Below, piece after piece: positions 2,163 through 16,189 of a DNA stretch of 16,651 bases (position 1 is its first letter; each line of letters opens with the position of its first letter). A program made the translations under genes and the position numbers. Source of the DNA: Competibacteraceae bacterium UBA2792 (GTDB lineage: Bacteria; Pseudomonadota; Gammaproteobacteria; Competibacterales; Competibacteraceae); the NCBI GenBank assembly GCA_002352125.1, contig DEHU01000258.1, forward strand, positions 1 through 16,651, read 5' to 3'. The notes beneath the pieces were generated by a model, which had not been told where the DNA came from, searched no databases, and saw only the letters and a program-made list of their open reading frames with translations.

Positions 2163-3557
2163 CTAATGTGCACCCTTGCCCCACAGAATAGTGTGCACTG
2201 TCTGTAACAGGATAATGGTGTCGAAAAAGAAGCTGTAGTTCTTGATGTAGTACAGATCGTACTGCAATTTCTCGCGCGCATCCTCTTCGGACGCACCGTA
2301 GGGATAGCAGATTTGCGCCCAGCCAGTAATGCCTGGTTTGACCATATGGCGCATCGAATAGAACGGAATATTTTTGCGCAGATCGGCCACGAACTGCGGC
2401 CGTTCTGGCCGCGGGCCAACGAAACTCATGTCGCCGCGCAGTACGTTGAACAGTTGGGGCAATTCGTCGATGCGGGTGTCACGCAGTACCGCACCGACCC
2501 GGGTAATCCGCGAGTCGTTCTTGCCGGCCCAGACCGCTTTGCCATCTTTCTCGGCATCGACTCGCATGCTGCGGAATTTGACGACTTCGAACACCCGCTC
2601 GTTGAATCCGACCCGGGCTTGCCGGTACAGAATCGGCCCGCGGCCGCCCGATTCGAGCCAGACTGCCAATGCGGCAAACAACATAACCGGCCATGTGACC
2701 ACCAACAACAACGAACAAGCGGCAAGATCGAACAGCCGCTTCGCGGCTCGCTTGAGCAACGCCAACCGAAACCCGTCGGAAAAGATCATGTTGCTCGGTC
2801 GCAAGGCATCGAGCTGAATCTTTCCGGTCTCCCGTTCGTAAAACGTCAGAAAATTGCTGATGATCGCCCCCTGCATCTTGCACTCGAACACCTCGTCGAG
2901 TGGAAAACCCTTGCGCCGATCATCCATCGCGATCACGATCTCGTCGATGTGCAAATCTTCCGCCAAATCGCTCAGCGTGCTGGTCACCTGGAGCGTTCGG
3001 GAAACCGGTATGCCCATATATTCGTGTTCGTGGACTTGAACGTAACCTAGAACCTGGAAACCTACGTTCTTGTCCTGTAATTCTTCGAGCCGGGCCGCTT
3101 GTCGGCCTACCCCCAACACCAGCACTCGGCGTTTGATCTGATCTTGGTCGGAAACGTGGAAAAATCCGAAGCGCAACAGCAACACCCCGAAGAAAGCGAT
3201 GCCGAACGCCAGAGCGAACTCGCTGCGCCCCAAATACAGGCCGGGAAAGAGATAATAGATGTTCGTCATCACGAATAACCCGAGCATGAAGCTCACCCCG
3301 ACCCGCAACAACATGTCGCTCTTGCCGCTCCAGAAGTTGCGCTCATACAGCCCCATCGCCGTCATGATCGCGCACATGACCACCACGCAGACCAATGCGC
3401 TCGGAACTATTCCGCCAAAGGGCGGCAACGTATCTTTGCCACCCAGAGCCACGTATAACACCCGGCCAAAATATATCGACCAGAAAAAGAGGAGCAATTC
3501 GGCGAGCAGCAAGGTCACCAACGCTCGAGAAACGTAGTGTCTGAACAGGCGCATCAT
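2163..3557 (-). CDS. Membrane polyprenyl-phosphate sugar-1-phosphate transferase (EpsB_2 / exopolysaccharide type)
   Basis: Predicted initiating glycosyltransferase of exopolysaccharide synthesis, moving a hexose-1-phosphate from a UDP-sugar to undecaprenyl phosphate at the inner membrane. The 464 residues begin with four hydrophobic segments (roughly 12-30, 49-70, 83-104, 112-135). A nucleotide-binding-like domain starting near 'RVLVLGVG' (about 144) follows, then a fifth membrane segment (about 272-300) and the bacterial sugar transferase catalytic domain. Conserved catalytic-domain motifs are visible: 'KFRSMRVDAE', 'RIDELPQLFNVLRGDMSFVG', 'PRPERP' and 'KPGITGWAQ'. The N-terminal 'RLFRHYVSR' resembles the PEP-CTERM/exosortase-associated EpsB_2 subfamily, though this is from memory and no PEP-CTERM gene is in the window. 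Two adjacent ATGs mark the start; no convincing ribosome binding site is seen. The gene is divergent from the UDP-sugar dehydrogenase across an AT-rich region. The donor sugar cannot be read from sequence. Confidence 0.9.
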   Translation of the reverse strand: MMRLFRHYVSRALVTLLLAELLLFFWSIYFGRVLYVALGGKDTLPPFGGIVPSALVCVVVMCAIMTAMGLYERNFWSGKSDMLLRVGVSFMLGLFVMTNIYYLFPGLYLGRSEFALAFGIAFFGVLLLRFGFFHVSDQDQIKRRVLVLGVGRQAARLEELQDKNVGFQVLGYVQVHEHEYMGIPVSRTLQVTSTLSDLAEDLHIDEIVIAMDDRRKGFPLDEVFECKMQGAIISNFLTFYERETGKIQLDALRPSNMIFSDGFRLALLKRAAKRLFDLAACSLLLVVTWPVMLFAALAVWLESGGRGPILYRQARVGFNERVFEVVKFRSMRVDAEKDGKAVWAGKNDSRITRVGAVLRDTRIDELPQLFNVLRGDMSFVGPRPERPQFVADLRKNIPFYSMRHMVKPGITGWAQICYPYGASEEDAREKLQYDLYYIKNYSFFFDTIILLQTVHTILWGKGAH

Positions 3558-3748
3558 CGGATTGAACGCTCGGAATCAATGACCGTGAGTTTTTCGTCTT
3601 TTTTATATGACATTATTTCTAAATTTAATTTTTAAGTGAGGTAACATTAAACCCGATTTATCAATATCAAGAAAAGATAATGTACCAGAAAAGCCCCGGC
3701 CTTTGTACTAGGCTAAGTTTGCAGCAACACCGTAAAATGGAGAATTTA
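3558..3748. promoter_or_regulatory. AT-rich divergent intergenic region of the exopolysaccharide genes
   Basis: About 190 bp separates the divergently read sugar transferase and UDP-sugar dehydrogenase genes. The part at roughly 3590-3682 is strikingly AT-rich with T-runs, in otherwise GC-rich DNA. It must hold both promoters, but I see only a weak -10-like GATAAT (3676-3681) and no good -35 or sigma-54 pair. The last bases hold a clear ribosome binding site, GGAG at 3739-3742, six bases before the ATG at 3749. Confidence 0.4.
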
Positions 3749-5026
3749 ATGCTTGATCTCGCCACCACTCGCATCGGCATCGTCGGCCTCGGCTACGTGG
3801 GGCTCCCTCTGGCGGTCGAATTCGGCAAACAATTTCCGACGCTTGGCTTCGACATCAACGAAACCCGAGTTTGCGGCCTTGTCGATGGCATCGACAGTAC
3901 GCTGGAGGTCGCGCCGGAAGATTTGCGACAAGCCAAGCAGTTACACTACACCAGCCGTGCCGAAGAACTGACAGACTGCAACGTGTACGTCATCACGGTT
4001 CCCACTCCAGTGGACGATTATAGGCGTCCGGATTTCGGTCCGCTAATCGGGGCTAGCACCACCGTTGGCCGGTTGCTCAAACCGGGCGACGTGGCCATCT
4101 ACGAATCCACGGTTTATCCCGGCGCCACCGAAGAGGTTTGCGTACCGATTCTGGAGCGAGAGTCCGGATTACGCTTTAACGTGGATTTTTTTGCCGGTTA
4201 CAGTCCGGAGCGCATTAACCCCGGCGACAAGGAGCATCGGGTCACGACCATCCGTAAGGTCACTTCCGGCTCCACTCCTGCCGTCGCCGAGTTCGTGGAT
4301 GCCCTGTACCAACGGATCATCACCGCCGGCACCCACAAGGCTTCCAGCATCCGGGTAGCAGAAGCGGCCAAGGTGATCGAGAACACCCAGCGCGACGTCA
4401 ACATCGCGTTGGTCAACGAACTGGCACTGTTGTTCGAGCGGCTGGGCATCGACACCGAGGAAGTGCTGCTGGCCGCTGGCTCCAAGTGGAATTTCCTGCC
4501 GTTCCGGCCGGGGTTGGTCGGCGGCCACTGCATCGGCGTCGACCCTTACTACTTGACTTACAAGGCGCAAGAAATCGGCTATCACCCGGAAATGATTCTC
4601 GCCGGTCGGCGCATCAACGACGGCATGGGCGCCTACGTGGCCCGGCGAGTCGTCAAACTGATGACCCAGAAACGCATCCCAGTGGTAGACGCCAACATCC
4701 TGGTGATGGGTCTGACCTTCAAGGAAAACTGTCCGGATCTGCGCAACACCCGGGTGGTCGATATCGTCCAGGAATTTCGCGACTACAACGCCCGGGTCGA
4801 CGTTTACGATCCTTGGGTGGATGCTCGCGAAGCGGCGCACGAATACCGGATCGAACCGGTCCAGGAGCCGAAGCAGGGCCACTACGATGCCATCATTTTG
4901 GCGGTCGCTCACCGGCAATTTCGAGAACTGGGCGCCGAGGGCATCCGTGCCTTGGGCAAACCGAACTCGGTGCTGTTCGATGTAAAATACGTTCTGCCAG
5001 CCGGCACCGTGGACGGTCGGCTGTAG
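3749..5026 (+). CDS. tviB: UDP-N-acetyl-hexosamine 6-dehydrogenase (TviB/WbpA/WbpO type)
   Basis: NAD-dependent four-electron oxidation of a UDP-N-acetylhexosamine (UDP-GlcNAc, UDP-GalNAc or UDP-ManNAc type) to the uronic acid, supplying precursor for a capsule, O-antigen or exopolysaccharide. The product is 425 residues, the usual length. The Rossmann motif GxGxxG is at residues 13-18. The catalytic cysteine is C261 in '[12 protein letters not shown]', whose context is typical of the N-acetyl-sugar branch rather than UDP-glucose dehydrogenase. The motifs '[10 protein letters not shown]' and '[12 protein letters not shown]' also fit. The start at 3749 is preferred over upstream in-frame starts (3680, 3737): it has GGAG six bases upstream, and the 23 extra residues of the longer frame precede the conserved N-terminus and look non-coding. 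The epimerase follows after 25 bp, so the two are probably co-transcribed. The exact sugar specificity is not certain. Confidence 0.92.
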
Positions 5027-5051
5027 CGCAGAGCCAAGCACGAGAGACGCC

Positions 5052-6059
<1,008 letters not shown>

Positions 6060-6116
6060 ATTTCGTTGCTGCTTCCAGCCGTTACCTCCCCCTGCCCACT
6101 GAATCCTCGATCGAGA

Positions 6117-6542
6117 ATGCCTCGGCAAATCCGGCTCGCCGAACCGGCGATATGCGACGTATCGCAACTACGGCGACGCGAGCCGGTTTGGACAGCTTTG
6201 TCGGAACTGTGGCTGGATACCGAAATCGCCGAGCAGGATTTAGCTCGTATCGCGCACGTCATGGCTGAATCCGGCTTCGACATCGCAACTTTGCGCGCGA
6301 TTTACTTGGTCGAGGTGGCGCCCGTCGTATCGTGGAATCTACTCGGTGTCGCCGGTGTCTGGACGACATTCGACCCGCAGTGGTTGCACTCCGCTATCGT
6401 TCATAATTTACGATACCGGGCTCGATATCTACGATTTTTGGCCCGCTTTCCACTCACCCGCCGCCTGATGACGTATGCGACGGAAGAACATTGGACGAAA
6501 TTGGTCGAATTCATCGCCAAGCGGCGCGCAACCACCGCATAG
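6117..6542 (+). CDS. DUF7079-type conserved protein of unknown function
   Basis: A 141-residue soluble protein with no signal peptide or membrane segment. The core reads 'RREPVWTALSELWLDTEI' then 'ARIAHVMAESGFDIATLRAI', then 'EVAPVVSWNLLGVAG' and 'TFDPQWL'. I recall this pattern as that of the DUF7079 family of proteobacteria, small helical proteins with no assigned function. An upstream in-frame TTG at 6066 would add 17 residues rich in Pro and Ser that do not look conserved, so the ATG at 6117 is preferred; neither start has a strong ribosome binding site. It lies 57 bp after the epimerase on the same strand and 57 bp before the amidase. No function can be inferred from this setting. Confidence 0.72.
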   Translation: MPRQIRLAEPAICDVSQLRRREPVWTALSELWLDTEIAEQDLARIAHVMAESGFDIATLRAIYLVEVAPVVSWNLLGVAGVWTTFDPQWLHSAIVHNLRYRARYLRFLARFPLTRRLMTYATEEHWTKLVEFIAKRRATTA

Positions 6543-6599
6543 GCTGGAATCGCGCCGCATCCATACAGGGATTCGAGACACCATCGAGCGAACGATACC

Positions 6600-7274
6600 A
6601 TGCCGACAAGACACCACCGCTTCTCTCGTCGCGGCTTGCTCAAATGGATCGCGGGCGCGGCGGCTATCGGCACCCTACCCTTCCTCTATTACCGTTATCG
6701 GCTCCAGGTCTTTCCTCTTGGCCCGCCCGCTGTCATCCCCCGTTCGGAATGGGGCGCGGAAGAACCGGACCCGGCCCTCCAAAACGAAGGCGGCCACGAA
6801 GTATTCAACACCGTGGTCGTACACCATTCCGCCATGTTGCTCTCCGAAGGCCCGCGCGCGATTCAATACGTGCATATGCACCGGCGAGATTTTCTGGATA
6901 TTGGCTACCATTTCGTGATCGACGGACAGGGACGCATCTACGAAGGCCGGAGCCTTGCCGTGCATGGCGCCCACGTAAAAGGCCATAATGCCGGCACCCT
7001 GGGCATCGCGTTGATGGGAAATTACGAAGAGAGCGAACCCATCCCCGAACAGTTGGCCCGCTTGAAATGGTTGATCCGGGATCTCATGACAAAACATCCG
7101 CTCACCCATTTGGCGGGTCACAGCGACTTTCTACCGGGGAAAACGCTCTGCCCCGGCAAGAATTTGGAGCCGTTGCTGCCGGCTCTAGCCAGCGAGTTGG
7201 GCCTAAAATTCGGCACGGACGGTTACATCGGCCCGGAACCGGCGCCCGCCGCTCTTGTGACCGCCGTACGTTAG
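6600..7274 (+). CDS. Tat-exported PGRP-type N-acetylmuramoyl-L-alanine amidase
   Basis: Predicted zinc amidase that cuts the MurNAc-L-Ala bond of peptidoglycan in the periplasm. The 224 residues begin with a twin-arginine signal, SRRGLLK at 9-15, followed by a hydrophobic stretch (about 16-31), so export in folded form or membrane anchoring is likely. The Amidase_2/PGRP fold starts near 'IPRSEWGAEEP' (46-56). Likely zinc ligands are H75 in 'VVVHHSA', H174 in 'HLAGHSDF' and C184 in 'TLCPGK', matching the His-His-Cys set of T7 lysozyme-like amidases. 'YHFVIDGQGRIYEGR' and 'NAGTLGIALMGNY' are typical core motifs. The gene is followed by a probable terminator and then the nifB control region, so it is probably not part of the nif unit. 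A role in wall recycling or competition is speculation. Confidence 0.87.
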   Translation: MPTRHHRFSRRGLLKWIAGAAAIGTLPFLYYRYRLQVFPLGPPAVIPRSEWGAEEPDPALQNEGGHEVFNTVVVHHSAMLLSEGPRAIQYVHMHRRDFLDIGYHFVIDGQGRIYEGRSLAVHGAHVKGHNAGTLGIALMGNYEESEPIPEQLARLKWLIRDLMTKHPLTHLAGHSDFLPGKTLCPGKNLEPLLPALASELGLKFGTDGYIGPEPAPAALVTAVR

Positions 7275-7294
7275 ATTCCCGCTCCTGCGTCTCT

Positions 7295-7324
7295 CGGCCC
7301 CCGAAAGCGGGTTAGCCGAATTTT
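7295..7324 (+). terminator. Probable rho-independent terminator after the amidase gene
   Basis: A two-tier hairpin: outer arms CGGC (7295-7298) and GCCG (7315-7318), inner arms CCCG (7300-7303) and CGGG (7308-7311) with loop AAAG. It is followed by AATTTT, ending at 7324. It sits 20 bp after the amidase stop and just before the first NifA box, so it would insulate nifB from upstream read-through. The inner and outer stems are only 4 bp each, so this is moderate evidence. Confidence 0.45.
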
Positions 7325-7339
7325 GTGCCATTGCCGACA
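7324..7339 (+). promoter_or_regulatory. NifA upstream activator sequence 1 for nifB
   Basis: Perfect match to the NifA box TGT-N10-ACA: TGT at 7324-7326 and ACA at 7337-7339. It is centred about 130 bp before the expected nifB transcription start, within the usual range for NifA acting through DNA looping. It forms a pair with the box at 7356. Confidence 0.75.
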
Positions 7340-7355
7340 ATAGCCCATCTCCCGC

Positions 7356-7371
7356 TGTGACAAATGCCACA
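7356..7371 (+). promoter_or_regulatory. NifA upstream activator sequence 2 for nifB
   Basis: A second perfect TGT-N10-ACA: TGT at 7356-7358 and ACA at 7369-7371. Its start is 32 bp from the first box, about three helical turns, so both would face the same side of the DNA. It lies 65 bp before the -24 element. Confidence 0.8.
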
Positions 7372-7434
7372 GCACACCCAGCGTTCCCAATAAAAAAACC
7401 ATCTCCGACAATAGGTTGCTCGACTCATCGGTTC

Positions 7435-7450
7435 AGGCACGCCGGTTGCT
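7435..7450 (+). promoter_or_regulatory. Sigma-54 (-24/-12) promoter of the nifB operon
   Basis: The sequence AGGCACGCCGGTTGCT matches the sigma-54 consensus TGGCACG-N4-TTGCW except for the first base. The invariant GG (7436-7437) and GC (7448-7449) are separated by exactly 10 bases. Transcription would start near 7460, giving a leader of about 70 nt before the nifB ATG. With the two NifA boxes upstream, this makes nifB and the genes after it a NifA-controlled unit. Confidence 0.88.
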
Positions 7451-7530
7451 AAGCGATTCTTGCCGGCCGCGAGCCGCTACGGCGGACGACTATCCACTTC
7501 GACCGATTGCCCGTTTGCAGGGGAACGCAC

Positions 7531-8967
7531 ATGGAACCGACTAGCCAGCCGATGACCGCCGGTGCTTCTCCGGCGCTTCATCCCTGTTACTCCGAGCAGG
7601 CGCATCGCCATTTTGCCCGCCTGCACCTGGCGGTCGCGCCGGCTTGCAACATCCAGTGCCACTATTGCAACCGCAAATACGACTGTTCCAACGAATCCCG
7701 GCCCGGCGTGGTGTCGGAACTGCTGACGCCCGAACAGGCCGCGCACAAGGCTTTGGCGGTGGGCGCGGCGATTCCGCATCTGGCGGTGGTGGGCGTGGCC
7801 GGCCCTGGCGATCCGCTGGCCAATCCCGAGCGGCTGTTCGCAACATTCCGCGAACTGGCGGAAAAGGCGCCCGATCTGACCCTGTGCGTGTCCACCAACG
7901 GATTGGCGTTACCGGAACAGGTGGAAGAACTGGTCAAGTACCACATCGGCCATGTCACCATCACCATCAATTGCATCGACCCGGATATCGGCGCCCGGAT
8001 CTATCCCTGGATTTTCTGGAACCATCGCCGGATTCGAGGCCGCAAGGCAGCGGAAATGCTGATCGCCCAGCAACAGAAGGGGCTGGAAATGCTGATCGAG
8101 CGCGGGGTGCTGGTCAAAGTCAACTCGGTACTGATTCCAGGAATCAACGACGAACACCTCCACGAAGTCCACCGGGTCGTCAAGGCCAAGGGTGCCTTCT
8201 TGCACAACATCATGCCGCTGATCGCCCGTCCCGAGCACGGCACCTATTACGGCCTCGCCGGGCAGGTTGAACCGACCGCCGAGCAGGTGCGCGCGCTGCA
8301 AGATGCCTGCGCCAGCGAGAGCGGCGAAACCGGGATGATGAACCATTGCCAGCAATGCCGGGCTGATGCGGTGGGGATGCTAGGCCAGGATCGCGGCGCG
8401 GAATTCACCTTGGAAAAAGTCGCGGCCATGCAAGTGGATTGGCGGGCGGCGCTGGCGAAGCGGGCGGCGGTGCGCGCCACCATCGAACGTCGTCTGGCGA
8501 TGCAAACCCAGTTCGCCAAGGCGAAAAGTCCCATCCCATTGCCGGCCCGGCGCCCTGCGATCATCGCACCGGAAACCTTGCGGATGGCGGTGGGCAGCAA
8601 CGATGGACAGACCATCGACGCGCATTTCGGTCATGCTCGCGAATTCCTGATTTTCGATGTCTCCCCCACCGGCATGCGTTTGGTCGCGCGGCGCGGTATC
8701 GACAGCAATTATTGCAGCGGTCCAACCACTTGCGGCGACACCACGACCGTCCTTGCCAGCGCCATCGAAGCGCTGCGCGATTGCGCGGTGCTGCTCTGTG
8801 CCCGAATCGGCTTCGAGCCTTGGCGCCCCCTGGAGGATGCCGGCATCCAGCCCAACAGCGAGCATGCCATGGAACCGATCGTCGATGCGCTGCTAGCGGT
8901 TTACCGCGAATGGTGCGATGGCGGCCGGCTCGAAACCGAACCGGCCCTGGTCCGTTCTTCCGCCTGA
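7531..8967 (+). CDS. nifB: NifB, nitrogenase cofactor (NifB-co) synthase
   Basis: Radical SAM enzyme that fuses two [4Fe-4S] clusters and inserts the central carbide to make NifB-co, precursor of all nitrogenase cofactors. The 478-residue product has the radical SAM cysteines C39, C43 and C46 in 'ACNIQCHYCNRKYDC', with further cysteines nearby for the K clusters. A SAM-binding glycine region is visible in 'GVAGPGDPLANP'. From about residue 350 ('MAVGSNDGQTIDAHFGH') a NifX/NafY-like domain follows, giving the long proteobacterial two-domain architecture. The ATG at 7531 has AGGGGA (7519-7524) six bases upstream, so an earlier in-frame TTG at 7507 is rejected. It is the first gene after a sigma-54 promoter with two NifA boxes, and fdxN follows 12 bp after its stop. 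The identification is secure. Confidence 0.97.
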   Translation: MEPTSQPMTAGASPALHPCYSEQAHRHFARLHLAVAPACNIQCHYCNRKYDCSNESRPGVVSELLTPEQAAHKALAVGAAIPHLAVVGVAGPGDPLANPERLFATFRELAEKAPDLTLCVSTNGLALPEQVEELVKYHIGHVTITINCIDPDIGARIYPWIFWNHRRIRGRKAAEMLIAQQQKGLEMLIERGVLVKVNSVLIPGINDEHLHEVHRVVKAKGAFLHNIMPLIARPEHGTYYGLAGQVEPTAEQVRALQDACASESGETGMMNHCQQCRADAVGMLGQDRGAEFTLEKVAAMQVDWRAALAKRAAVRATIERRLAMQTQFAKAKSPIPLPARRPAIIAPETLRMAVGSNDGQTIDAHFGHAREFLIFDVSPTGMRLVARRGIDSNYCSGPTTCGDTTTVLASAIEALRDCAVLLCARIGFEPWRPLEDAGIQPNSEHAMEPIVDALLAVYREWCDGGRLETEPALVRSSA

Positions 8968-8979
8968 GTCTGCATCGTC

Positions 8980-9246
8980 ATGGCGTTCCGCATCGTCGCG
9001 AATTGCACTAACTGCTGGGCCTGTTTGCCGCTCTGTCCTCACGAGGCCATCCGCGCCGCGACGCCACACTTCGAGATCGATACGGCTCGCTGTACCGAGT
9101 GTGCCGGCGATTACGCCGACCCGCAGTGCGCCAGCATTTGCCCGGTCGAAGGCGCCATCGTCGATAGTACCGGCCAAGCCTTGAATCCCCCCGGTTCGCT
9201 GACCGGTTTGTCACCCGAATTCCTAACCCTTCCATCCACCCCTTGA
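8980..9246 (+). CDS. fdxN: nifB-linked 2[4Fe-4S] ferredoxin (FdxN type)
   Basis: Small bacterial ferredoxin of 88 residues with two cluster motifs. The first is C-x2-C-x2-C-x3-CP in 'CTNCWACLPLCP'. The second is C-x2-C-x8-C-x3-CP in 'CTECAGDYADPQCASICP', whose longer middle loop is typical of the FdxN group found directly after nifB. In known diazotrophs FdxN donates electrons for NifB-co synthesis. It lies 12 bp after the nifB stop, so it is almost certainly co-transcribed and possibly translationally coupled; no strong ribosome binding site of its own is seen. The C-terminal tail of about 25 residues after the second cluster is Pro- and Leu-rich and unremarkable. Confidence 0.92.
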   Translation: MAFRIVANCTNCWACLPLCPHEAIRAATPHFEIDTARCTECAGDYADPQCASICPVEGAIVDSTGQALNPPGSLTGLSPEFLTLPSTP

Positions 9247-9546
<300 letters not shown>

Positions 9547-9589
9547 CCGCCCTTAAGTTTCATTTTTTCGCGCTTGGGAGACCGTGTCC

Positions 9590-9940
9590 ATGCCATTAGT
9601 TACGTTTTCGCATCCTGAACACAAAACCAAAACCGTTTACGTCCCTGCCGGCAGCCATATCGAAACGGTCCTGAAAGTCGCCAAGGCCAACAAGATTCCG
9701 ATCAATTTCGATTGCCAAGATGGCGAATGCGGAACTTGTCTGGTCAAGGTGACGAGCTTGGATAAAAAGAAAGAGCGGATGAGCGGTCCGCCAACCGAGA
9801 AGGAAAGAAACCTGCTCAAGCAACTCGGCAAGCTGACCGACGAGGAAATCAGCCAGATTCTGGTAGATGACATTCCGCCACCCTGGCGGCTGGCTTGCCA
9901 GATGATCGTGCGCGACGAGGATATTCTGGTGGAATACTAA
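9590..9940 (+). CDS. fesII: FeSII-like [2Fe-2S] ferredoxin (Shethna protein II type)
   Basis: A 116-residue [2Fe-2S] protein with ligands C42, C47, C50 and C103 ('FDCQDGECGTCLVKV', 'WRLACQMIV'). Between the third and fourth cysteines is a charged insertion of about 50 residues ('TEKERNLLKQLGKLTDEE') absent from ordinary plant-type ferredoxins. From memory, this insertion, the DIPPPWRLACQ segment and the acidic end 'RDEDILVEY' match Azotobacter vinelandii FeSII. That protein binds nitrogenase under oxygen stress and holds it in an inactive protected complex. Lysines near residues 12-14 and 59-61 could serve contacts with nitrogenase, as proposed for FeSII. The ATG at 9590 has GGGAG (9576-9580) nine bases upstream; a GTG at 9584 is too close to it. 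It lies in the nifB unit. It could instead be a plain electron carrier. Confidence 0.82.
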   Translation: MPLVTFSHPEHKTKTVYVPAGSHIETVLKVAKANKIPINFDCQDGECGTCLVKVTSLDKKKERMSGPPTEKERNLLKQLGKLTDEEISQILVDDIPPPWRLACQMIVRDEDILVEY

Positions 9941-9966
9941 ACAGGATACTAACCGGGCTCGTGCCC

Positions 9967-10566
9967 ATGTCGCCAAATCCGCGCTTGAAATCTCCGATGC
10001 CTCCCGGCGCCGATGCTCATCGGCAAATCCACGGTTTGCTGATGAGCTACAGCCGGGGTTTGCCCAACGATGACACTTTGGCGCGGATGTTGGCGACCCA
10101 GGCCAGTGGCGGCGGTTCGTTGCCTGCCGGCTTGGGGCTGACGCCACCCGAATTCGTCGCCTTGCTAGGGCGGCATTTTCCGGGCGCCACATTGCCGGTC
10201 ATGCCGGACCGGCCACCGCCCGCTTGGGATCCGAGGCTGCTGGAGGAAAAAGAAGAACTGATCAAGTTGCTCGACTTTCACCGGGCAGGACAGGATGTTT
10301 CAGAGCGTTGGATGAGCGTGATCGTCGCTACCGGCTGCATGGCTAACGATCATCTTTGGGAGGATCTAGGCTTGTGGTCGCGGCGGGATTTGAGCGAACT
10401 GATGGCGCGGAATTTTCCGGTGCTGGCGGCTAAAAACGACCGCGACATGAAGTGGAAGAAGTTTCTCTACAAACAGCTTTGCGAGCAGGAAGGCATCTAC
10501 CTGTGCCGTGCTCCTTCCTGCGCGATCTGTCGCGATTACGCGCTTTGCTTTGGGCCGGAAGATTGA
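9967..10566 (+). CDS. nifQ: NifQ, molybdenum donor for FeMo-cofactor synthesis
   Basis: NifQ carries a [Mo-3Fe-4S] cluster and gives molybdenum to NifEN/NifH during FeMo-co maturation. The family signature C-x4-C-x2-C-x5-C is complete near the C-terminus: C180, C185, C188 and C194 in 'CRAPSCAICRDYALC'. The preceding 'WEDLGLWSRRDLSELMARNFP' and 'ARNFPVLAAKNDRDMKWKKF' are typical of NifQ. The product is 199 residues, close to the usual length. The frame is open further upstream into the FeSII-like gene, but ATG 9967 is preferred because it does not overlap that gene; a GTG at 9961 is possible. It is the last plus-strand gene of this nif unit, meeting the diguanylate cyclase gene tail to tail. 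Its presence implies a molybdenum nitrogenase. Confidence 0.95.
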   Translation: MSPNPRLKSPMPPGADAHRQIHGLLMSYSRGLPNDDTLARMLATQASGGGSLPAGLGLTPPEFVALLGRHFPGATLPVMPDRPPPAWDPRLLEEKEELIKLLDFHRAGQDVSERWMSVIVATGCMANDHLWEDLGLWSRRDLSELMARNFPVLAAKNDRDMKWKKFLYKQLCEQEGIYLCRAPSCAICRDYALCFGPED

Positions 10567-10603
10567 TAATCCAACGGTGAAGAGCAAAGCTTGGTCCTAC
10601 GTT

Positions 10604-11779
10604 TTACGGGGTGTCGGCGGCGACCCGGTCACGCCCAGCCGTTTTAGCGGCATATAACGCCGCATCGGCGCGTTGGATCACCCCGGACGGGGTTACGTCC
10701 ACACTGCGCGCCAGCGCAACACCGATGCTGGCATGGACGACGATGCTGCGGTCGCCTACGGCCACCGGCTGCGCGCCTATCACAATGCGCAATCGCTCTG
10801 CCGCTTCTACGGCCTTACCGATCCGCGTCGTCTGCTGCAAGATAACCGCAAACTCTTCACCGCCGATGCGCGCCACCACGTCGGTATCGCGCGACGCTTG
10901 CCGAAGGCGTCGTGCCACTTCGGCGAGCACGGCATCGCCGGCGGGGTGGCCATGCTCGTCATTGATGTGCTTGAAGTGATCGACATCGATCATCAGCAGC
11001 GCGAAGCCGATACCGCTGCGCTTCGCGCGACGCCACTCGCGTTGCAGTTCTTGATCGAAGGCGCGGCGGTTGAGCGCGGCCGTCAACGGATCGCGCATCG
11101 TCAGTTCGCGCAGCCGAACGACGAAGCGCGTGAGCAACATACCCAGCATCGAGAAGTTGAAGAGCGCCGCGCTGATCAGATAATTCAAGAGCAACTCGAT
11201 GTTGGCGAAGCTATCCTGATGCATCTCCAGCGAGCGGTCCATATTTTGCGATTGCTGCGCCAGGCGCACGGAAAAGCCCGCCACGATCAGCACCCCGGGG
11301 ATCGCCAGCAGAGATGCCAGCTTCCAGCCAAACTCGACCTTAAACGCCGGCCAAGCGCGCAACACCGAGACCAGCATAAACAGCGCCAGTCCGCCGTAGG
11401 AAAACAACACGCGCCACGACGCCATTGCCTCGGACGGACCGATGCAGACCAAGGCCGCGGTCGTGACGGCCACGATGGCCACTTGCACGCGGTCCCAGCC
11501 CGGGAGCCGCAAGAAGAGCTCCAGTCCACGATTGAGCATCGCGTACGACAGCAGCCACGAGATGGCGCTGCCCACATAGGCCCACCAGCCTCGCGTCTCG
11601 TTGCGCTGCGCGGCCAGCACCATGCCGACAGCGAGCAGCAACATGAAAGCTGCCCAGCACCAAGCAGCCGGTCGCTCATCGGCGATCAGCAGGCCGCACA
11701 AAAGCCATCCCAATACGTACAGCGTAAACTGGGCGCCGACGAGCAGCACAAGCGGAGCAAGGATCAGGTTTTCGGTCAT
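10604..11779 (-). CDS. Membrane-bound diguanylate cyclase (GGDEF domain)
   Basis: Makes c-di-GMP from two GTP at the inner membrane. The 391 residues begin with about seven hydrophobic segments (roughly 4-32, 38-57, 66-88, 98-114, 121-140, 152-171, 193-219), an N-terminal region I do not recognise as a named sensor. The GGDEF domain runs from about 229 to 388, starting 'DPLTAALNRRAFD'. The active-site signature GGEEF is intact at 306-310. An RxxD inhibitory site (RDTD, 297-300) lies exactly five residues before it, so product feedback inhibition is expected. The gene converges with nifQ. A degraded IS256 fragment begins about 20 bp upstream of its ATG, and no ribosome binding site is seen, so its native promoter may have been lost or replaced. 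It and the EAL proteins form opposing c-di-GMP activities in the same insert. Confidence 0.93.
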   Translation of the reverse strand: MTENLILAPLVLLVGAQFTLYVLGWLLCGLLIADERPAAWCWAAFMLLLAVGMVLAAQRNETRGWWAYVGSAISWLLSYAMLNRGLELFLRLPGWDRVQVAIVAVTTAALVCIGPSEAMASWRVLFSYGGLALFMLVSVLRAWPAFKVEFGWKLASLLAIPGVLIVAGFSVRLAQQSQNMDRSLEMHQDSFANIELLLNYLISAALFNFSMLGMLLTRFVVRLRELTMRDPLTAALNRRAFDQELQREWRRAKRSGIGFALLMIDVDHFKHINDEHGHPAGDAVLAEVARRLRQASRDTDVVARIGGEEFAVILQQTTRIGKAVEAAERLRIVIGAQPVAVGDRSIVVHASIGVALARSVDVTPSGVIQRADAALYAAKTAGRDRVAADTP

Positions 11780-11798
11780 TTAGGTCAGCGGGTGTTAT

Positions 11799-11987
11799 GA
11801 ACACCATCGCCAGGATACCCCAGCGAGAGACGCAACTCAGGGTCTTGTCAGTGCGCAACCGAACGACGGCGAAGGTGGCAATGGAGTTCGCGATCCGCGG
11901 GCGAACCCAATGTCCAGCGGGAGAATCATCAAACGCCAACAGCACCGCGTGGGCTTTCTCGAAGCAGATCGCCGCTTTCGGGCAATA
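11799..11987 (-). pseudogene. Decayed IS256-family transposase fragment
   Basis: Read on the minus strand, this stretch translates to a degraded C-terminal piece of an IS256 (Mutator-like) transposase: 'PKAAICFEKAHAVLLAFDD', then 'SPAGHWVRPRIANSIATFAV', then 'RLRTDKTLSCVSR' and 'AMVF'. I recall the family pattern as PKA..CL.KD...LLAFYDFPAEHW...RT.NPIESTFATVR.RT..TKGCLS...ALAMVF. Relative to this, the NPIES segment has lost a residue, and with it the conserved glutamate. Nothing of the N-terminal two thirds of a transposase is seen upstream and no terminal repeats were found. It sits directly upstream of the diguanylate cyclase and marks a past insertion event. Confidence 0.78.
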
Positions 11988-12252
11988 GGGCGGCCGGGAA
12001 CGGATTGAAAGCGCGTTTGGCGTCGATGCGGGGCGCGGCCATCGAAATGTCGTGCAAGGCTGCCTTCGATTACTGGCTCTTGGACGGTTTATTCAAGCGC
12101 ATTAGCGGTTCCTGGACCTCACAGCGCTGACCTTGTGTCCCCCCGAACGGATCGCTTAGCAGAATAATTTTATCTTTGCTCACGGCGCATTCGTTCTTTC
12201 ATCACATCGGGCTATCGGGAGTAACATTAGCCCAAGCAACCAATCGTTCTGC
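11988..12252. other. Gene-free stretch between the IS fragment and the EAL gene
   Basis: No convincing coding region on either strand. It begins GC-rich and turns AT-rich from about 12160, the likely left edge of the compositionally different segment. An inverted repeat GGGCTA (12209-12214) / TAGCCC (12228-12233) with a 13-base loop lies just past the EAL stop. It has no T-run in the EAL reading direction, so it is at best a weak terminator. The rest may be further unrecognisable mobile-element remains. Confidence 0.4.
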
Positions 12253-12972
12253 TCAATCATTTGGATAAAAAGCTACCGGCAAGCGTTCAAACGCTGGTTT
12301 GGCAAAAAAATAGCCTTGGAATAACTCGATACCTTCCTCATAGCACCAAAGATATTCTTTCTTAGTTTCGACACCTTCAGCAATGATATCGATACCAAGA
12401 TCTCTACAAGTCCGGATAATACCCCTCACTATGGCTTGGCGGGGTCCACGGCTATCGATACAACGAATCAATGACATATCGATTTTGATACTATCCGGCT
12501 GAAAGTCAGCCAACAAATTCAAGCCGGAATAACCGGCACCAAAATCGTCAATCGCGATACCAATTCCAGCACTACGATATTGATTAATGGATTCAGCAAA
12601 TTCATCGATATCATCAATGATTTCAGACTCCGTCACTTCGATCGTGATCGATTCACGAGAAATACCGACAGAATCAGCCATCGCCAAAGTCGACGAAATT
12701 GCAGTTTGCGAAGCCAACAGTGCCTTTGAAAATAAATTCAAATTCAAATGACACCCCAGGCCTAGTTTGGCTGCCAATGAAATGGCTTTTAGCCGTAATA
12801 GCTCATCGAACTGATACAGATTGACTTGCTCTACCTGCTGAAAAATCTGACTGGCTGGATCGTTGCGATAACCACGCACCAAAGCTTCAAAAGAAATGAT
12901 TGAGCCGGTGGCGATATTAACAATCGGTTGAAAAGCAAACGAAAAATCAGGAAAAATCGCCTCGCTAACCAT
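12253..12972 (-). CDS. Stand-alone EAL-domain c-di-GMP phosphodiesterase
   Basis: A 239-residue soluble protein made up almost entirely of one EAL domain, predicted to hydrolyse c-di-GMP to pGpG. The main catalytic and metal-binding motifs are present: E29-A-L (residues 29-31), the Asn in 'CHLNLNLF', 'IEVTESE', 'DDFGAGYS', the Lys in 'DSIKIDMSL', 'AEGVET' and the Gln in 'FQGYFFAKP'. There is no sensor domain, membrane segment or signal peptide. The ATG at 12972 is chosen because it lies 4 bp after the stop of the BLUF-EAL gene; starting at 13029 would add 19 residues that overlap that gene. No strong ribosome binding site is seen, consistent with translational coupling. It is clearly related in sequence to the degenerate EAL half of its neighbour. 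Codon use is more AT-rich than in the flanking nif genes. Confidence 0.92.
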   Translation of the reverse strand: MVSEAIFPDFSFAFQPIVNIATGSIISFEALVRGYRNDPASQIFQQVEQVNLYQFDELLRLKAISLAAKLGLGCHLNLNLFSKALLASQTAISSTLAMADSVGISRESITIEVTESEIIDDIDEFAESINQYRSAGIGIAIDDFGAGYSGLNLLADFQPDSIKIDMSLIRCIDSRGPRQAIVRGIIRTCRDLGIDIIAEGVETKKEYLWCYEEGIELFQGYFFAKPAFERLPVAFYPND

Positions 12973-12976
12973 AATT

Positions 12977-14179
12977 CTACGCCAGAGGTATGTTTGGGCT
13001 GGGCAATTGCTCAAAAGCAGGGCTAGCAATGTAATTGCCCTGCAATAACTCTACCTCCTCATCGACGAACCATTTAAACTCACCCAGCGTCTCAATATTC
13101 TTGGCCATCATATCGATACCCAAGTCAGTACAAGTTTGCTTTAAACCCAGAACAATGGCTTGGCGTGGTCCATTTTTATCGATATCCTGCACTAACTGTG
13201 CATCCAATGAAATCATTTCTGGGCGCAGCAGTGCCAATAAATTTAAACTGGCAAGCCCAGAACCGAAATGATCAATTGAAATACGCAAACCCGACCCGCG
13301 ATATTCTTCAATAATCTTGGCAAACTGCTCACGTTCGCCAATCAGTTTATCTTGATCAATTTGTAAAACAATACGACTTGGCTCAATACCATTTTTCTCG
13401 GCAGCCTCCAAAGAGGCCGAAATCGCCGCCTGCGCATCTTCCACTCGCCTGGCAATAAAACTCAGATGCAAATCACACGATAAACCCAATTTGGCTGCCA
13501 TGCTAATGGCAATAGCCCGGCAATTAGTATCGAAATAAGACCACTCGATATCACCGATCTGTGGCAAAATGTCTGGAAAGGCCTCATTATGTTGTCCACA
13601 CAAAATTGCTTCGTAAGCCTTTACGGTACCGTTAGCGACATTAATCACAGGCTGGAAAGAAAAAGACACTTTTGGCGTCATCATGGTAGCCGGTTGCATA
13701 ACTAATTTTTTGGCATCCGCCCCAAGATCAGGACTTAACGTATACTTGACTTTAGTGCGCCAGCGCCCCTCCCGAAAGGCGGCCAATAATTTTTTGGCCC
13801 GACCCGGCGTAATTTCAGTAAAACTAGAGCCTTTGCTGAAAAAATCATTCAGACCAATCAATTCATCCAGTTCCTGCTGAGAAACGCTAGAATAGCCCAT
13901 AGTCCATTCACCAAAGGCGCGCTTGGCAATAGGCTCTCGAATAATAGTCGAAACTTTAGTGTGCCTAACATCTTGGCTAATTTCATCAAATAACCGATCA
14001 ACGACTACCGCTGTCCCTTCTAGCACCTGAAAAAAACTGCCGTTCTCATAAAGCAGCATGCCAGTGATACCTAGCCGCGCATTTTTAGCTCTGGCCTTTA
14101 CCAGTAATTCGCGTAACTCAGACTCCTGCATGGGCTGAACTGCCGCGCTGCAATAAATCAGATGTATTAAAGTAACCAT
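12977..14179 (-). CDS. BLUF blue-light sensor fused to a degenerate EAL domain
   Basis: A 400-residue soluble protein. Residues 1 to about 97 are a BLUF flavin-binding photosensor. Y9, N33, Q51, W92 and M94 sit at exactly the spacing of the AppA residues Y21, N45, Q63, W104 and M106, so light sensing should work. A helical linker (about 100-165) leads to an EAL domain (about 170-395) that has lost most catalytic residues. EAL reads EAI (190-192), the catalytic Asn is H238, EVTE reads Q-I-D-Q (273-276), DDFG reads D-H-F-G (303-306), the catalytic Lys is S324 and EGVET reads K-N-I-E-T; only E190, D303 and Q380 remain. It is therefore probably not a phosphodiesterase but a binding or regulatory module, as reported for E. 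coli BluF/YcgF. It is followed by an intact EAL gene 4 bp downstream. AAAGG seven bases before the ATG is a plausible ribosome binding site. Confidence 0.92.
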   Translation of the reverse strand: MVTLIHLIYCSAAVQPMQESELRELLVKARAKNARLGITGMLLYENGSFFQVLEGTAVVVDRLFDEISQDVRHTKVSTIIREPIAKRAFGEWTMGYSSVSQQELDELIGLNDFFSKGSSFTEITPGRAKKLLAAFREGRWRTKVKYTLSPDLGADAKKLVMQPATMMTPKVSFSFQPVINVANGTVKAYEAILCGQHNEAFPDILPQIGDIEWSYFDTNCRAIAISMAAKLGLSCDLHLSFIARRVEDAQAAISASLEAAEKNGIEPSRIVLQIDQDKLIGEREQFAKIIEEYRGSGLRISIDHFGSGLASLNLLALLRPEMISLDAQLVQDIDKNGPRQAIVLGLKQTCTDLGIDMMAKNIETLGEFKWFVDEEVELLQGNYIASPAFEQLPSPNIPLA

Positions 14180-14200
14180 TGCTCCGCCTTTATGTCTGGC

Positions 14201-14228
14201 TATTAAATTTCACTTAAAGACCTAACAA
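14201..14228 (-). promoter_or_regulatory. Possible sigma-70 promoter of the BLUF-EAL / EAL operon
   Basis: On the minus strand a -35-like TTGTTA (14228-14223) and a -10-like TTAATA (14206-14201) are 16 bases apart, in AT-rich DNA about 22 bp before the BLUF-EAL ATG. The fit is only fair. Confidence 0.35.
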
Positions 14229-14315
14229 ATTTATCCGCTACCCCGCTGTCATGGGCGCGAAGCGCCTGCAACGACGCTGGAGTTCAGCGGGACGTTTAGC
14301 TCGTCTGCTGAAACG
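14220..14315. repeat. Palindrome-rich, attC-like or terminator-like element
   Basis: A GC-rich, highly self-complementary block inside AT-rich DNA. Outer arms CCCGCTG (14242-14248) and CAGCGGG (14285-14291) enclose a hairpin GGCGC-GAA-GCGCC (14254-14266). An alternative hairpin, CGCTG/CAGCG (14275-14279 / 14285-14289), competes with the outer stem. A further hairpin pairs CGTTTAGC (14293-14300) with GCTGAAACG (14307-14315), with one bulge. Read on the minus strand, just after the methylase stop, it starts GCTAAAC and ends GTTAGGT. These resemble the RYYYAAC and GTTRRRY ends of an integron attC site, the right end perfectly and the left with one mismatch. The spacers are asymmetric and no integrase is in the window, so a folded terminator or a REP-like element is equally possible. 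Confidence 0.45.
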
Positions 14316-14344
14316 ACTTGTCATGCCGTATCATATTTGGCACG

Positions 14345-15238
14345 TCACTCAAGAAAAGCATGCTGAACTGGGCGGCTTGTTACCACTTCTCGTGACGACG
14401 CAGCGAAATTAGTAACTAGCGCTTCAACAATTGGGTTTCTATTCTCTTCTTTTCCACCGATATGATAAAAATGTTCTCTGGTTAGAATTGGAAAGCTCGA
14501 CCAGAGGAATTTTATATAATTATTCTCTCGATAGTCATTGTGATGCCAAGTAGACAATATAAATTTACCGCGAAAATTGACCAAGCACTCGAAAAGGTCT
14601 TGTTCATGAGCATCATCCCATCCGTTGTAGTAATCAACATGCCTATCGATATAAGGAGGATCACAATAAATAATGTCATTTTCAATAGCTTGGGATATGG
14701 TTTTCTCGAAGCTTTGGCACTTAAAAGAAAAATCTTTTGCCCTAATTATTTTTGCAACCCATGCAACCTGATTGGTTATTTTCGTTATATAGGCTTGTGC
14801 AAAGCGATTGGGTTTCCGACAAAATGGAATGTTAAATTTACCTTTACGATTGAACCTTATCATTCCATTGAACCCTGCCCGATTAACAAATAAGAAATCC
14901 AATGGAGAGTGCTCGGCATTAAATCTATCTCTTATAAAATAATAGTGTTCTTCTCCTTTTTCTAACAAGGTAGCACCCTCTCTATTGAGGTAGTCGTTGA
15001 CTATTTCAGGCGTGATTTCATTTCTAGCAATCGCAGAATAAAAATTTACTAGATAAGGGTTTGTATCGCAAAGTACTGCACAATATGGTGCAACGTTGAA
15101 GGCAACTGCGCCTGTTCCCATGAAAGGCTCAATCCAAGCACCATTGAAATCCGGTGGCATAATGCTCTTTATCCAAGGAATAAGCTTGGTCTTAATCCCT
15201 TGAGATTTAATTGGTGGAACGCCAAATTTAATGCTCAC
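14345..15238 (-). CDS. Dam/D12-class DNA adenine-N6 methyltransferase, apparently orphan
   Basis: Predicted to methylate the N6 of adenine in a short DNA motif using SAM. In the 297 residues, the SAM-binding motif I is '[12 protein letters not shown]' (from E37) and the catalytic motif IV is 'YCDPPY' (DPPY at 193-196), in the order of the alpha/D12 group. '[20 protein letters not shown]' is the family's conserved central segment. No restriction endonuclease or specificity subunit is nearby, so it looks like a solitary or phage/cassette-derived methylase. The start is a GTG at 15238; a short upstream ATG frame ends at a TGA overlapping that GTG and may be a leader or chance. Base composition is AT-rich compared with draT and nifH, suggesting recent transfer. 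Its recognition site cannot be read from sequence; GATC is only a guess from the family. Confidence 0.9.
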
Positions 15239-15298
15239 TCTTTACCGTTTCTCATAACATCCCTGCAACCCGGACCCATTCACGCAATTCCCGCTAAA

Positions 15299-16189
15299 TC
15301 ACGCCAATCTTTCCACCTCATAAATCCCGCCGATCACTACATACTCGTCCTCACCTTTCAGCATCCCCGGCAACAGCCGATTGTAGAAAAACACCTTGGA
15401 CACTGGTACTTGCGTCCGTAGCATATGATCGCCGAACTCCTCGGCGCGCTCGCGGCGGACGCTGAAGGAACTGAGGTTGTTGAGTAGCACGATCCAGTGG
15501 TGACGGTCGGGCTTGGCCAGCACTTGATCATCGCTGAATCGATTGAAACCGCGATACAAAGTCAGGTGGGTCAGATCCGGCTGCTGGCGGTGTAACTCGT
15601 ACTGGCAGTAGGTGTACAGCAGATCCAGTTGCGCCTCCAGCGCGTTGGTGTTGTACAAACCCTGGCTGCACACTTCCATAAAATGCTCGTAGGCATCCTC
15701 GGTGCGATCATCGAGCAGAACACCGTGAAAGCGGGTCAGCAATCCGAAGCGCGATTCCACCCACGCCTTCAATACGGCGCCTTCCCGGCTGTTGGGGTCG
15801 AAGGCCCAACCGCGCACCATGCGCAGATAATCCGCCCGCCCGCGCAGCTTGGGCCGACTCTGCCGCGAATCGGTCACCCGGTCTGGCATCAACCCCGCCT
15901 CTTCCAGTGCCTCCAGCCGGAAATGCACGGTCATGTAATCCATGAAGCGTCGCGCCCGTTCGGCGGGGTCCGTCAACGATTCCAACAACGGCAACAGATC
16001 GGCGTGCAGTTCTGCTACCCCATCGAGCAGCAGCGGTGCCGGATGGTGCTGAAACGTCAAGCCGCCCAAAATCACCGCTGGCAGGTTGCAGCGGTTGATC
16101 GGCAGGCAGGCGGTTTTAGGAAGGCGCGGCCCCCATTCGGGCGCCGCAGAAAAATTGTTATCAATCTGACAAGCGGCCGCGTTTGTCAT
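15299..16189 (-). CDS. draT: DraT, NAD+-dinitrogenase-reductase ADP-ribosyltransferase
   Basis: Switches nitrogenase off by attaching ADP-ribose from NAD+ to one arginine of the NifH dimer, typically after ammonium addition or energy loss. Recognisable DraT features in the 296 residues are 'LPINRCNLPAVILGGLTFQ' (from 29), 'RFMDYMTVHFRLE' and 'YNTNALEAQLDLLYTYCQYE'. An R-S-E type ADP-ribosyltransferase core is visible: R213 in 'LYRGFNRF', Ser-Phe-Ser at 241-243 and the acidic 'GEDEYVVIGG' (E280, E282). The ATG at 16189 is the only start before the conserved region; the first about 25 residues are poorly conserved, and their DNA carries a NifA box. It is divergent from nifH, its substrate gene, across 151 bp. 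The partner hydrolase gene draG is not in the window; it may lie elsewhere. Confidence 0.94.
   Translation of the reverse strand: MTNAAACQIDNNFSAAPEWGPRLPKTACLPINRCNLPAVILGGLTFQHHPAPLLLDGVAELHADLLPLLESLTDPAERARRFMDYMTVHFRLEALEEAGLMPDRVTDSRQSRPKLRGRADYLRMVRGWAFDPNSREGAVLKAWVESRFGLLTRFHGVLLDDRTEDAYEHFMEVCSQGLYNTNALEAQLDLLYTYCQYELHRQQPDLTHLTLYRGFNRFSDDQVLAKPDRHHWIVLLNNLSSFSVRRERAEEFGDHMLRTQVPVSKVFFYNRLLPGMLKGEDEYVVIGGIYEVERLA
16156..16171 (+). promoter_or_regulatory. NifA upstream activator sequence for nifH, inside the draT 5' end
   Basis: Perfect TGT-N10-ACA: TGT at 16156-16158 and ACA at 16169-16171. It overlaps codons 7-12 of draT and is centred about 128 bp before the expected nifH start. 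A near match, TGT-N10-ACC, lies at 16184-16199. The box could in principle also influence draT. Confidence 0.7.

What the first reader, a model, noticed from the sequence alone, without database searches (positions are those of the whole stretch)
12253..14179. Possible split light-controlled c-di-GMP phosphodiesterase: dead BLUF-EAL plus live EAL in one operon
A BLUF-EAL protein with a complete flavin pocket but a degenerate EAL domain is followed 4 bp later by a stand-alone EAL protein with all catalytic motifs. EAL domains work and are regulated as dimers (known for BlrP1). The arrangement therefore suggests a heterodimer in which the light sensor sits on the dead subunit and the activity on the other. 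Known BLUF-EAL proteins are either active themselves (BlrP1) or act through a repressor (E. coli BluF with BluR). No MerR-type repressor is seen here, and a sensor/enzyme split within one operon would be a different design.
Basis: partly seen in the sequence, partly recalled or inferred. Interest (0 to 1): 0.75.

Follow-up and report, generated by a model that had tools for sequence, protein, structure and literature searches.

The report
Two-gene blue-light c-di-GMP switch
Two neighbouring genes encode a blue-light sensor carrying a disabled enzyme domain and a separate working copy of that enzyme; relatives of the pair in distant bacteria suggest that the two proteins work together to break down a signalling molecule in response to light.

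Summary
P0002 (12980-14179, minus) is a BLUF-EAL protein with an intact flavin pocket and a dead EAL domain; P0001 (12253-12972, minus) starts 4 nt after its stop and is a stand-alone EAL with all eight checked catalytic residues. The dead EAL is not recent decay: of 120 listed homologues 72 are degenerate, 68 of 71 complete ones lost the same three catalytic positions, and the replacements are conserved. Sampled dead EALs form one clade (SH-aLRT 97). They appear linked to live EAL genes: 33 of 71 dead clusters share an exact longest-contig length with a live EAL cluster (28 of 40 on contigs of 5 kb or more), against 1 of 48 intact BLUF-EALs. Partner distances correlate. No second tandem locus was read directly. 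Here the pair lies in a low-GC island; no such BLUF-EAL was found in 39 other genomes of the order. Most likely the dead EAL is the dimerisation arm through which BLUF light-gates the live EAL; contact and light control are inferred. Splitting BLUF from EAL is known (PapB/PapA); the retained pseudo-EAL and its recurrent pairing I did not find in print.

The parts
12980..14179 (-). BLUF-pseudoEAL photosensor gene P0002, 400 aa (TAG at 12977-12979): BLUF residues 4-95, EAL-like residues 170-387
   Evidence: single BLUF gene found in the genome
13895..14170 (-). BLUF domain; flavin-site residues Y9, N33, Q51, W92, M94 intact
13019..13672 (-). Degenerate EAL domain; motif E S Q D H S K Q instead of E N E D D K E Q
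12973..12976 (-). 4-nt gap between TAG of the sensor gene and ATG of the enzyme gene; no clear Shine-Dalgarno before the ATG, so translational coupling is likely (inference)
   Evidence: read directly
12253..12972 (-). Stand-alone EAL gene P0001, 239 aa, all eight checked catalytic residues intact
12001..15254 (.). Low-GC island (0.37-0.47 in 800-bp windows against about 0.51-0.64 in most of the window) holding the pair and a D12-class adenine methyltransferase

Best explanation
The two genes encode one split light-controlled c-di-GMP phosphodiesterase. P0002 senses blue light with its BLUF domain (inferred from intact residues) and has kept the EAL fold and compound helix but lost catalysis (shown by sequence). 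P0001 carries the hydrolytic site (shown by sequence). The pseudo-EAL most likely pairs with the live EAL across the usual EAL dimer surface, so that flavin excitation shifts that interface and the DDFG loop of the live subunit (inferred from BlrP1 and other EAL dimers). Light probably raises hydrolysis, as in BlrP1 and PapB/PapA; the sign is a guess. The pair is inherited together and sporadically distributed, here as part of an acquired island.
For: Anatomy and motifs. Conserved pseudo-active site: of 71 complete degenerate homologues (the window's own database record among them) 68 lost D2, K and E together, replaced mostly by H (58), S (49) and K (66), while BLUF conservation equals that of the intact BLUF-EALs (0.725 and 0.725) and the compound helix stays at 0.84. 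Linkage: exact longest-contig lengths shared by 33 of 71 dead clusters and a live EAL cluster, 28 of 40 at 5 kb or more, 19 of 26 at 10 kb or more; intact BLUF-EALs 1 of 48, 0 of 25, 0 of 17; shifted-length control mean 0.98, max 4 over 400 shifts. Of the 33 partners all carry ENEDDKEQ (32, P0245). In the four pairs where both members bear an organism name the names agree. Three pairs sit on contigs of 2508-2697 nt that leave 567-783 nt beside the two genes. Mantel over 33 pairs (window pair plus 32): BLUF to live EAL r 0.72, dead to live EAL r 0.62, none of 2000 permutations as high. Dead EALs one clade, live partners within another, SH-aLRT 97 each. P0006 is a recombinant of the two paralogues. 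EAL dimerisation places the DDFG motif and BlrP1 signals through the EAL dimer region (PMC5301497 and PMC3989770, passages and one section).
Against: No structure of a complex could be predicted and no light or enzyme data exist. No second tandem locus was read: linkage rests on contig lengths, gene order and strand elsewhere are unknown, and 12 of 40 dead clusters on contigs of 5 kb or more lack a listed partner, among them Nodosilinea sp. E11 on a 5.46-Mb contig. Correlated distances show joint descent, not contact; no species tree was used as control. Eight of ten sampled live-clade EALs without a matched partner fall in the same clade, so live EALs may also occur alone. The P0002 model is moderate (pLDDT 78, residues 98-159 below 50).
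Confidence: 0.68

Rival explanations
1. PapB-like control without an EAL-EAL heterodimer: the BLUF domain and its cap helices contact the live EAL directly and the pseudo-EAL is only a homodimerisation or c-di-GMP-binding part.
For: PapB, which lacks an EAL, controls PapA in a heterotetramer (PMC8846402 passages). BLUF distances track live-EAL distances a little better (r 0.72) than dead-EAL distances do (0.62). A BLUF-only gene beside an intact EAL gene is seen in L062.
Against: The pseudo-EAL domain is kept at full length in nearly the whole dead clade and its compound helix is 84% conserved, more than a mere remnant needs.
Confidence: 0.17
2. Anti-repressor or adaptor like E. coli BluF: the dead BLUF-EAL acts on another protein, and the live EAL is an unregulated phosphodiesterase in the same transcript.
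For: E. coli BluF has a degenerate EAL and antagonises BluR (PMC3509220 passages).
Against: That paper says degenerate BluF genes usually lie beside a MerR-type BluR gene and ycgZ-ymgAB; none is beside this pair, and the genome's two MerR_1 hits are on other contigs. Recurrent linkage to a live EAL is not explained.
Confidence: 0.1
3. P0002 is a decaying duplicate with no function.
For: P0002 has more catalytic losses than most of its clade (N and first E also lost); Methylobacter L004 carries an interrupted BLUF-EAL remnant.
Against: The reading frame and BLUF pocket are intact, and the altered active-site letters are themselves conserved across the clade.
Confidence: 0.05

Closest known systems
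PapB-PapA of Rhodopseudomonas palustris (BLUF protein plus solo EAL protein)
   Same: Light sensor and phosphodiesterase on separate proteins; BLUF sensor; solo EAL enzyme (PMC8846402, passages).
   Different: PapB has no EAL part; here the sensor carries a conserved, catalytically dead EAL domain.
BlrP1 of Klebsiella pneumoniae (BLUF-EAL)
   Same: Same BLUF-EAL order and best PDB match by sequence (155 bits) and Foldseek E-value (4e-31).
   Different: BlrP1 is itself active as an antiparallel homodimer; P0002 lacks catalytic residues and the activity lies on a second gene. Whole-chain overlay is poor (rmsd 21, TM 0.53).
BluF (YcgF) of E. coli
   Same: BLUF-EAL with degenerate EAL (PMC3509220, passages).
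   Different: No BluR-type MerR gene or ycgZ-ymgAB unit seen beside it; a live EAL gene is beside it instead.
Stand-alone EAL of Vibrio cholerae O395 (6ifq family)
   Same: P0001's closest solved relative by sequence (210.6 bits).
   Different: No BLUF partner is part of that entry; I did not check its genome context.

Membership tests
BLUF-EAL phosphodiesterase (BlrP1 type) | BLUF domain with flavin-site residues followed by EAL domain | tested here: met
   Pfam BLUF and EAL in P0002; Y9, N33, Q51, W92, M94 present
BLUF-EAL phosphodiesterase (BlrP1 type) | Catalytic residues present in the same chain | tested here: not met
   P0002 reads ESQDHSKQ against ENEDDKEQ
PapB-PapA split sensor and enzyme | Separate live EAL protein encoded next to a BLUF protein | tested here: met
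   P0001 ENEDDKEQ, 4 nt downstream; that papA and papB are adjacent was not checked
PapB-PapA split sensor and enzyme | Sensor is a short BLUF protein without another domain | tested here: not met
   P0002 has an EAL domain at 170-387
PapB-PapA split sensor and enzyme | Physical complex with light-dependent hydrolysis | not testable with these tools
   No complex prediction or assay was possible
BluF-BluR anti-repressor system | Degenerate EAL in a BLUF-EAL protein | tested here: met
BluF-BluR anti-repressor system | Neighbouring MerR-type BluR gene | tested here: not met
   two MerR_1 hits in the genome, both on other contigs; neighbours are GGDEF and D12 methyltransferase genes
RimA (NCBIfam NF052265) | Curated score cut-off of 430 bits | tested here: not met
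   P0001 240 bits, P0002 162 bits

The most novel reading that the evidence does not exclude
A single-origin class of pseudoenzyme-gated phosphodiesterases: a BLUF-pseudoEAL light sensor that works only as a heteromer with a dedicated live EAL, inherited and transferred as a two-gene unit between phyla (at least Pseudomonadota and Cyanobacteria), and separate from BlrP1, BluF-BluR and PapB-PapA.
Probability: 0.55. Interest if true: 0.75.

Novelty: new variant of a known kind. Interest (0 to 1): 0.6.

Why it matters
EAL enzymes act as dimers, and in BlrP1 both subunits carry sensor and active site, which makes it hard to tell which subunit's light signal gates which active site. A natural pair with the sensor on a dead subunit and the activity on the other would let that be tested directly, would give a function to one group of degenerate EAL domains, and could serve as a two-part optogenetic tool for lowering c-di-GMP.

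Tried and rejected
Direct reading of a second tandem locus failed. The one genome-contig scan gave four BLUF relatives: L002 and L003 intact BLUF-EALs, L004 an interrupted remnant, L005 BLUF only. Two viral-contig scans gave none, plasmids only matches under 60% identity, and whole-genome searches gave no other member of the dead clade with its partner: 96 relatives, 398 of the phylum, 369 and 360 of the class, probably overlapping draws, 40 of the order, 78 of the class of G122. Linkage therefore rests on contig lengths.

Considered and rejected: E. coli BluF-type partner (no MerR gene beside the pair); random decay (conserved replacements); a contig-length coincidence (shift control). The single intact match, P0117 and P0249 on a 1514-nt contig, cannot hold both genes end to end (1920 nt). 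A pair-wise covariation test across the interface was judged too shallow with 33 pairs and not run. The tree used chosen rows: 42 of 72 dead, 17 of 48 intact, 32 partners, 10 other live EALs, 16 loci; quick method, SH-aLRT only.

Dropped before counts: the window's own database records P0003 and P0123 were left out; they were kept (there 32 of 72 dead and 0 of 48 intact matched, before P0242-P0249 were added). P0059 (incomplete) was left out of the 71. Search lists were capped at 120 rows (of 287, 6507, 7659).

Full report
Observation. On the minus strand P0002 (400 aa, 12980-14179) is followed after TAG and four bases by P0001 (239 aa, 12253-12972). Pfam gives BLUF plus EAL for P0002 and EAL for P0001. 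P0001 keeps E, N, E, D, D, K, E and Q at the eight positions checked; P0002 keeps E, D and Q only and has S, Q, H, S and K elsewhere. The BLUF flavin-site residues are intact. The two EAL domains are 42% identical.

The dead EAL is a conserved type. A protein search listed 120 of 287 homologues of P0002. By the eight positions 48 are intact and 72 are not. Of 71 complete degenerate ones (the window's own record included), 68 have lost the second Asp of DDFG, the Lys and the Glu of AEGVE together; the replacements are mostly His (58), Ser (49) and Lys (66), and an Asp-Gln pair replaces Thr-Glu in most (60 Asp, 59 Gln). Mean column conservation of the BLUF domain is the same in dead and intact proteins (0.725), and the stretch corresponding to the compound helix stays at 0.84 (0.88 in intact ones). 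In an EAL tree of 117 chosen rows the 42 sampled dead EALs are one clade (SH-aLRT 97). The 32 partners lie with 8 other live EALs in a second clade (97), and most intact BLUF-EALs in a third, weakly supported one (82).

The pair recurs. Searches with P0001 and with the partner alignment listed 120 rows each, which gave 126 stand-alone EAL clusters besides the window's own. Of 71 dead BLUF-EAL clusters (own record dropped) 33 have a longest contig of exactly the same length as one of these EAL clusters, 28 of 40 on contigs of at least 5 kb and 19 of 26 of at least 10 kb. For intact BLUF-EALs the figures are 1 of 48, 0 of 25 and 0 of 17. Shifting lengths by 1 to 200 bases gave on average 0.98 matches for the whole set, at most 4. 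The one intact match is on a 1514-nt contig, too short for both genes end to end. The intact set is a fair but imperfect control, since the EAL list was drawn with P0001 and its partners as query. Of the 33 partners all have ENEDDKEQ; in the whole first list 118 of 119 do, one has Lys for Glu. In four pairs both members carry an organism name and the names agree: Cyanobacteria bacterium P01_F01_bin.116, Spirulina sp. SIO3F2, Candidatus Thiodiazotropha (ex Lucinoma borealis) and a Chromatiales bacterium. On three short contigs (2508, 2521, 2697 nt) only 567-783 nt remain beside the two genes, so there they must be close. Distances between partners correlate: BLUF to live EAL r 0.72, dead to live EAL r 0.62 over 33 pairs, none of 2000 permutations as high. 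P0006, on a 1535-nt contig, is like dead P0002 over residues 168-300 (77%, against 35% to P0001) and like live P0001 over 340-400 (81%, against 53% to P0002), a recombinant or assembly join that implies both genes in one source.

Against this: 12 of 40 dead clusters on contigs of 5 kb or more have no listed partner, including Nodosilinea sp. E11 on a 5.46-Mb contig, and named dead clusters from Kofleriaceae and Schlesneria are also unmatched. The lists were capped, so the partners may lie further down or be absent. No tandem locus other than the window was read.

Intact BLUF-EALs look different. L003 (ORFs of 120 aa or more listed over 3000-9000) and L070 (110 aa or more) show an intact BLUF-EAL with no EAL gene beside it; L002 ends inside the gene, so only its upstream side is visible.

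In this genome. The pair and a D12-class adenine methyltransferase lie in DNA of 0.37-0.47 GC against about 0.51-0.64 in most of the window, between nifQ plus a GGDEF gene and draT. In same-genus G005, nifQ and draT flanks lie on one contig about 4.2 kb apart with other genes between. Among 40 genomes of the order only G000 has such a BLUF-EAL; two others matched only with a stand-alone EAL. Several of these genomes are incomplete. Acquisition by transfer is the simplest reading.

Mechanism. BlrP1 is an antiparallel EAL-EAL homodimer whose BLUF signal reaches the active site of the opposing monomer through the dimer interface (review PMC8846402, passages; PMC3989770, passages and section 7). 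EAL dimerisation brings the DDFG motif into place (PMC5301497, passages). PapB, a BLUF-only protein, regulates PapA in a heterotetramer. A dead EAL that keeps the compound helix and is linked to a live paralogue fits a heteromer with sensor on one chain and catalysis on the other. Shown: intact sensor pocket, dead and live catalytic sites, conservation, statistical linkage. Inferred: contact, hetero over homo pairing, the sign of the light effect, translational coupling. The AlphaFold2 model of P0001 is confident (pLDDT 94); that of P0002 is moderate (78, with 98-159 under 50), its best Foldseek hit BlrP1 with poor whole-chain overlay.

Novelty. Ten literature searches of the held open-access library gave no description of a BLUF-pseudoEAL paired with a live EAL; I saw listings of these and passages of seven papers. 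Subscription papers, such as the original PapB-PapA work (seen only as a reference), are not held. A 2014 review notes that some BLUF-EAL proteins are degenerate (PMC4844311, passages). I therefore call it a new variant of a known kind.

Noticed in passing
window 14345-15238 (-): D12-class N6 adenine DNA methyltransferase (Pfam PF02086) in the same low-GC island, upstream of the pair on the same strand.
   Followed up: partly
window 7507-16189: Nitrogen-fixation neighbourhood: a NifB-like radical protein (read from the ORF, not tested), ferredoxins, NifQ and a DRAT gene around the island.
   Followed up: partly
L062:1492-2828 (-) and L041:17-1261 (+): In G122 and G192 a BLUF-only ORF is followed by an EAL ORF (PapB/PapA-like layout); G122's EAL is intact, G192's is degenerate (EQEDDRKH). 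No other of 78 genomes of that class matched at E 1e-45.
   Followed up: partly
P0006 (database protein on a 1535-nt contig): Recombinant of dead BLUF-EAL (N part) and live EAL (C part), or an assembly join of the tandem paralogues.
   Followed up: partly
L004:1363-1983: Methylobacter psychrophilus carries a BLUF-EAL relative interrupted by a stop and cut short in the EAL part.
   Followed up: no
L042 and L049: Another group of BLUF-EALs (family f63) has DH for DD and V for the last E (ENEDHKVQ), a separate loss of catalytic residues in the tree.
   Followed up: no
window 10604-11779 (-): A GGDEF diguanylate cyclase gene lies next to the pair on the same strand, in normal-GC DNA, so opposing enzymes of c-di-GMP turnover are neighbours.
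   Followed up: no
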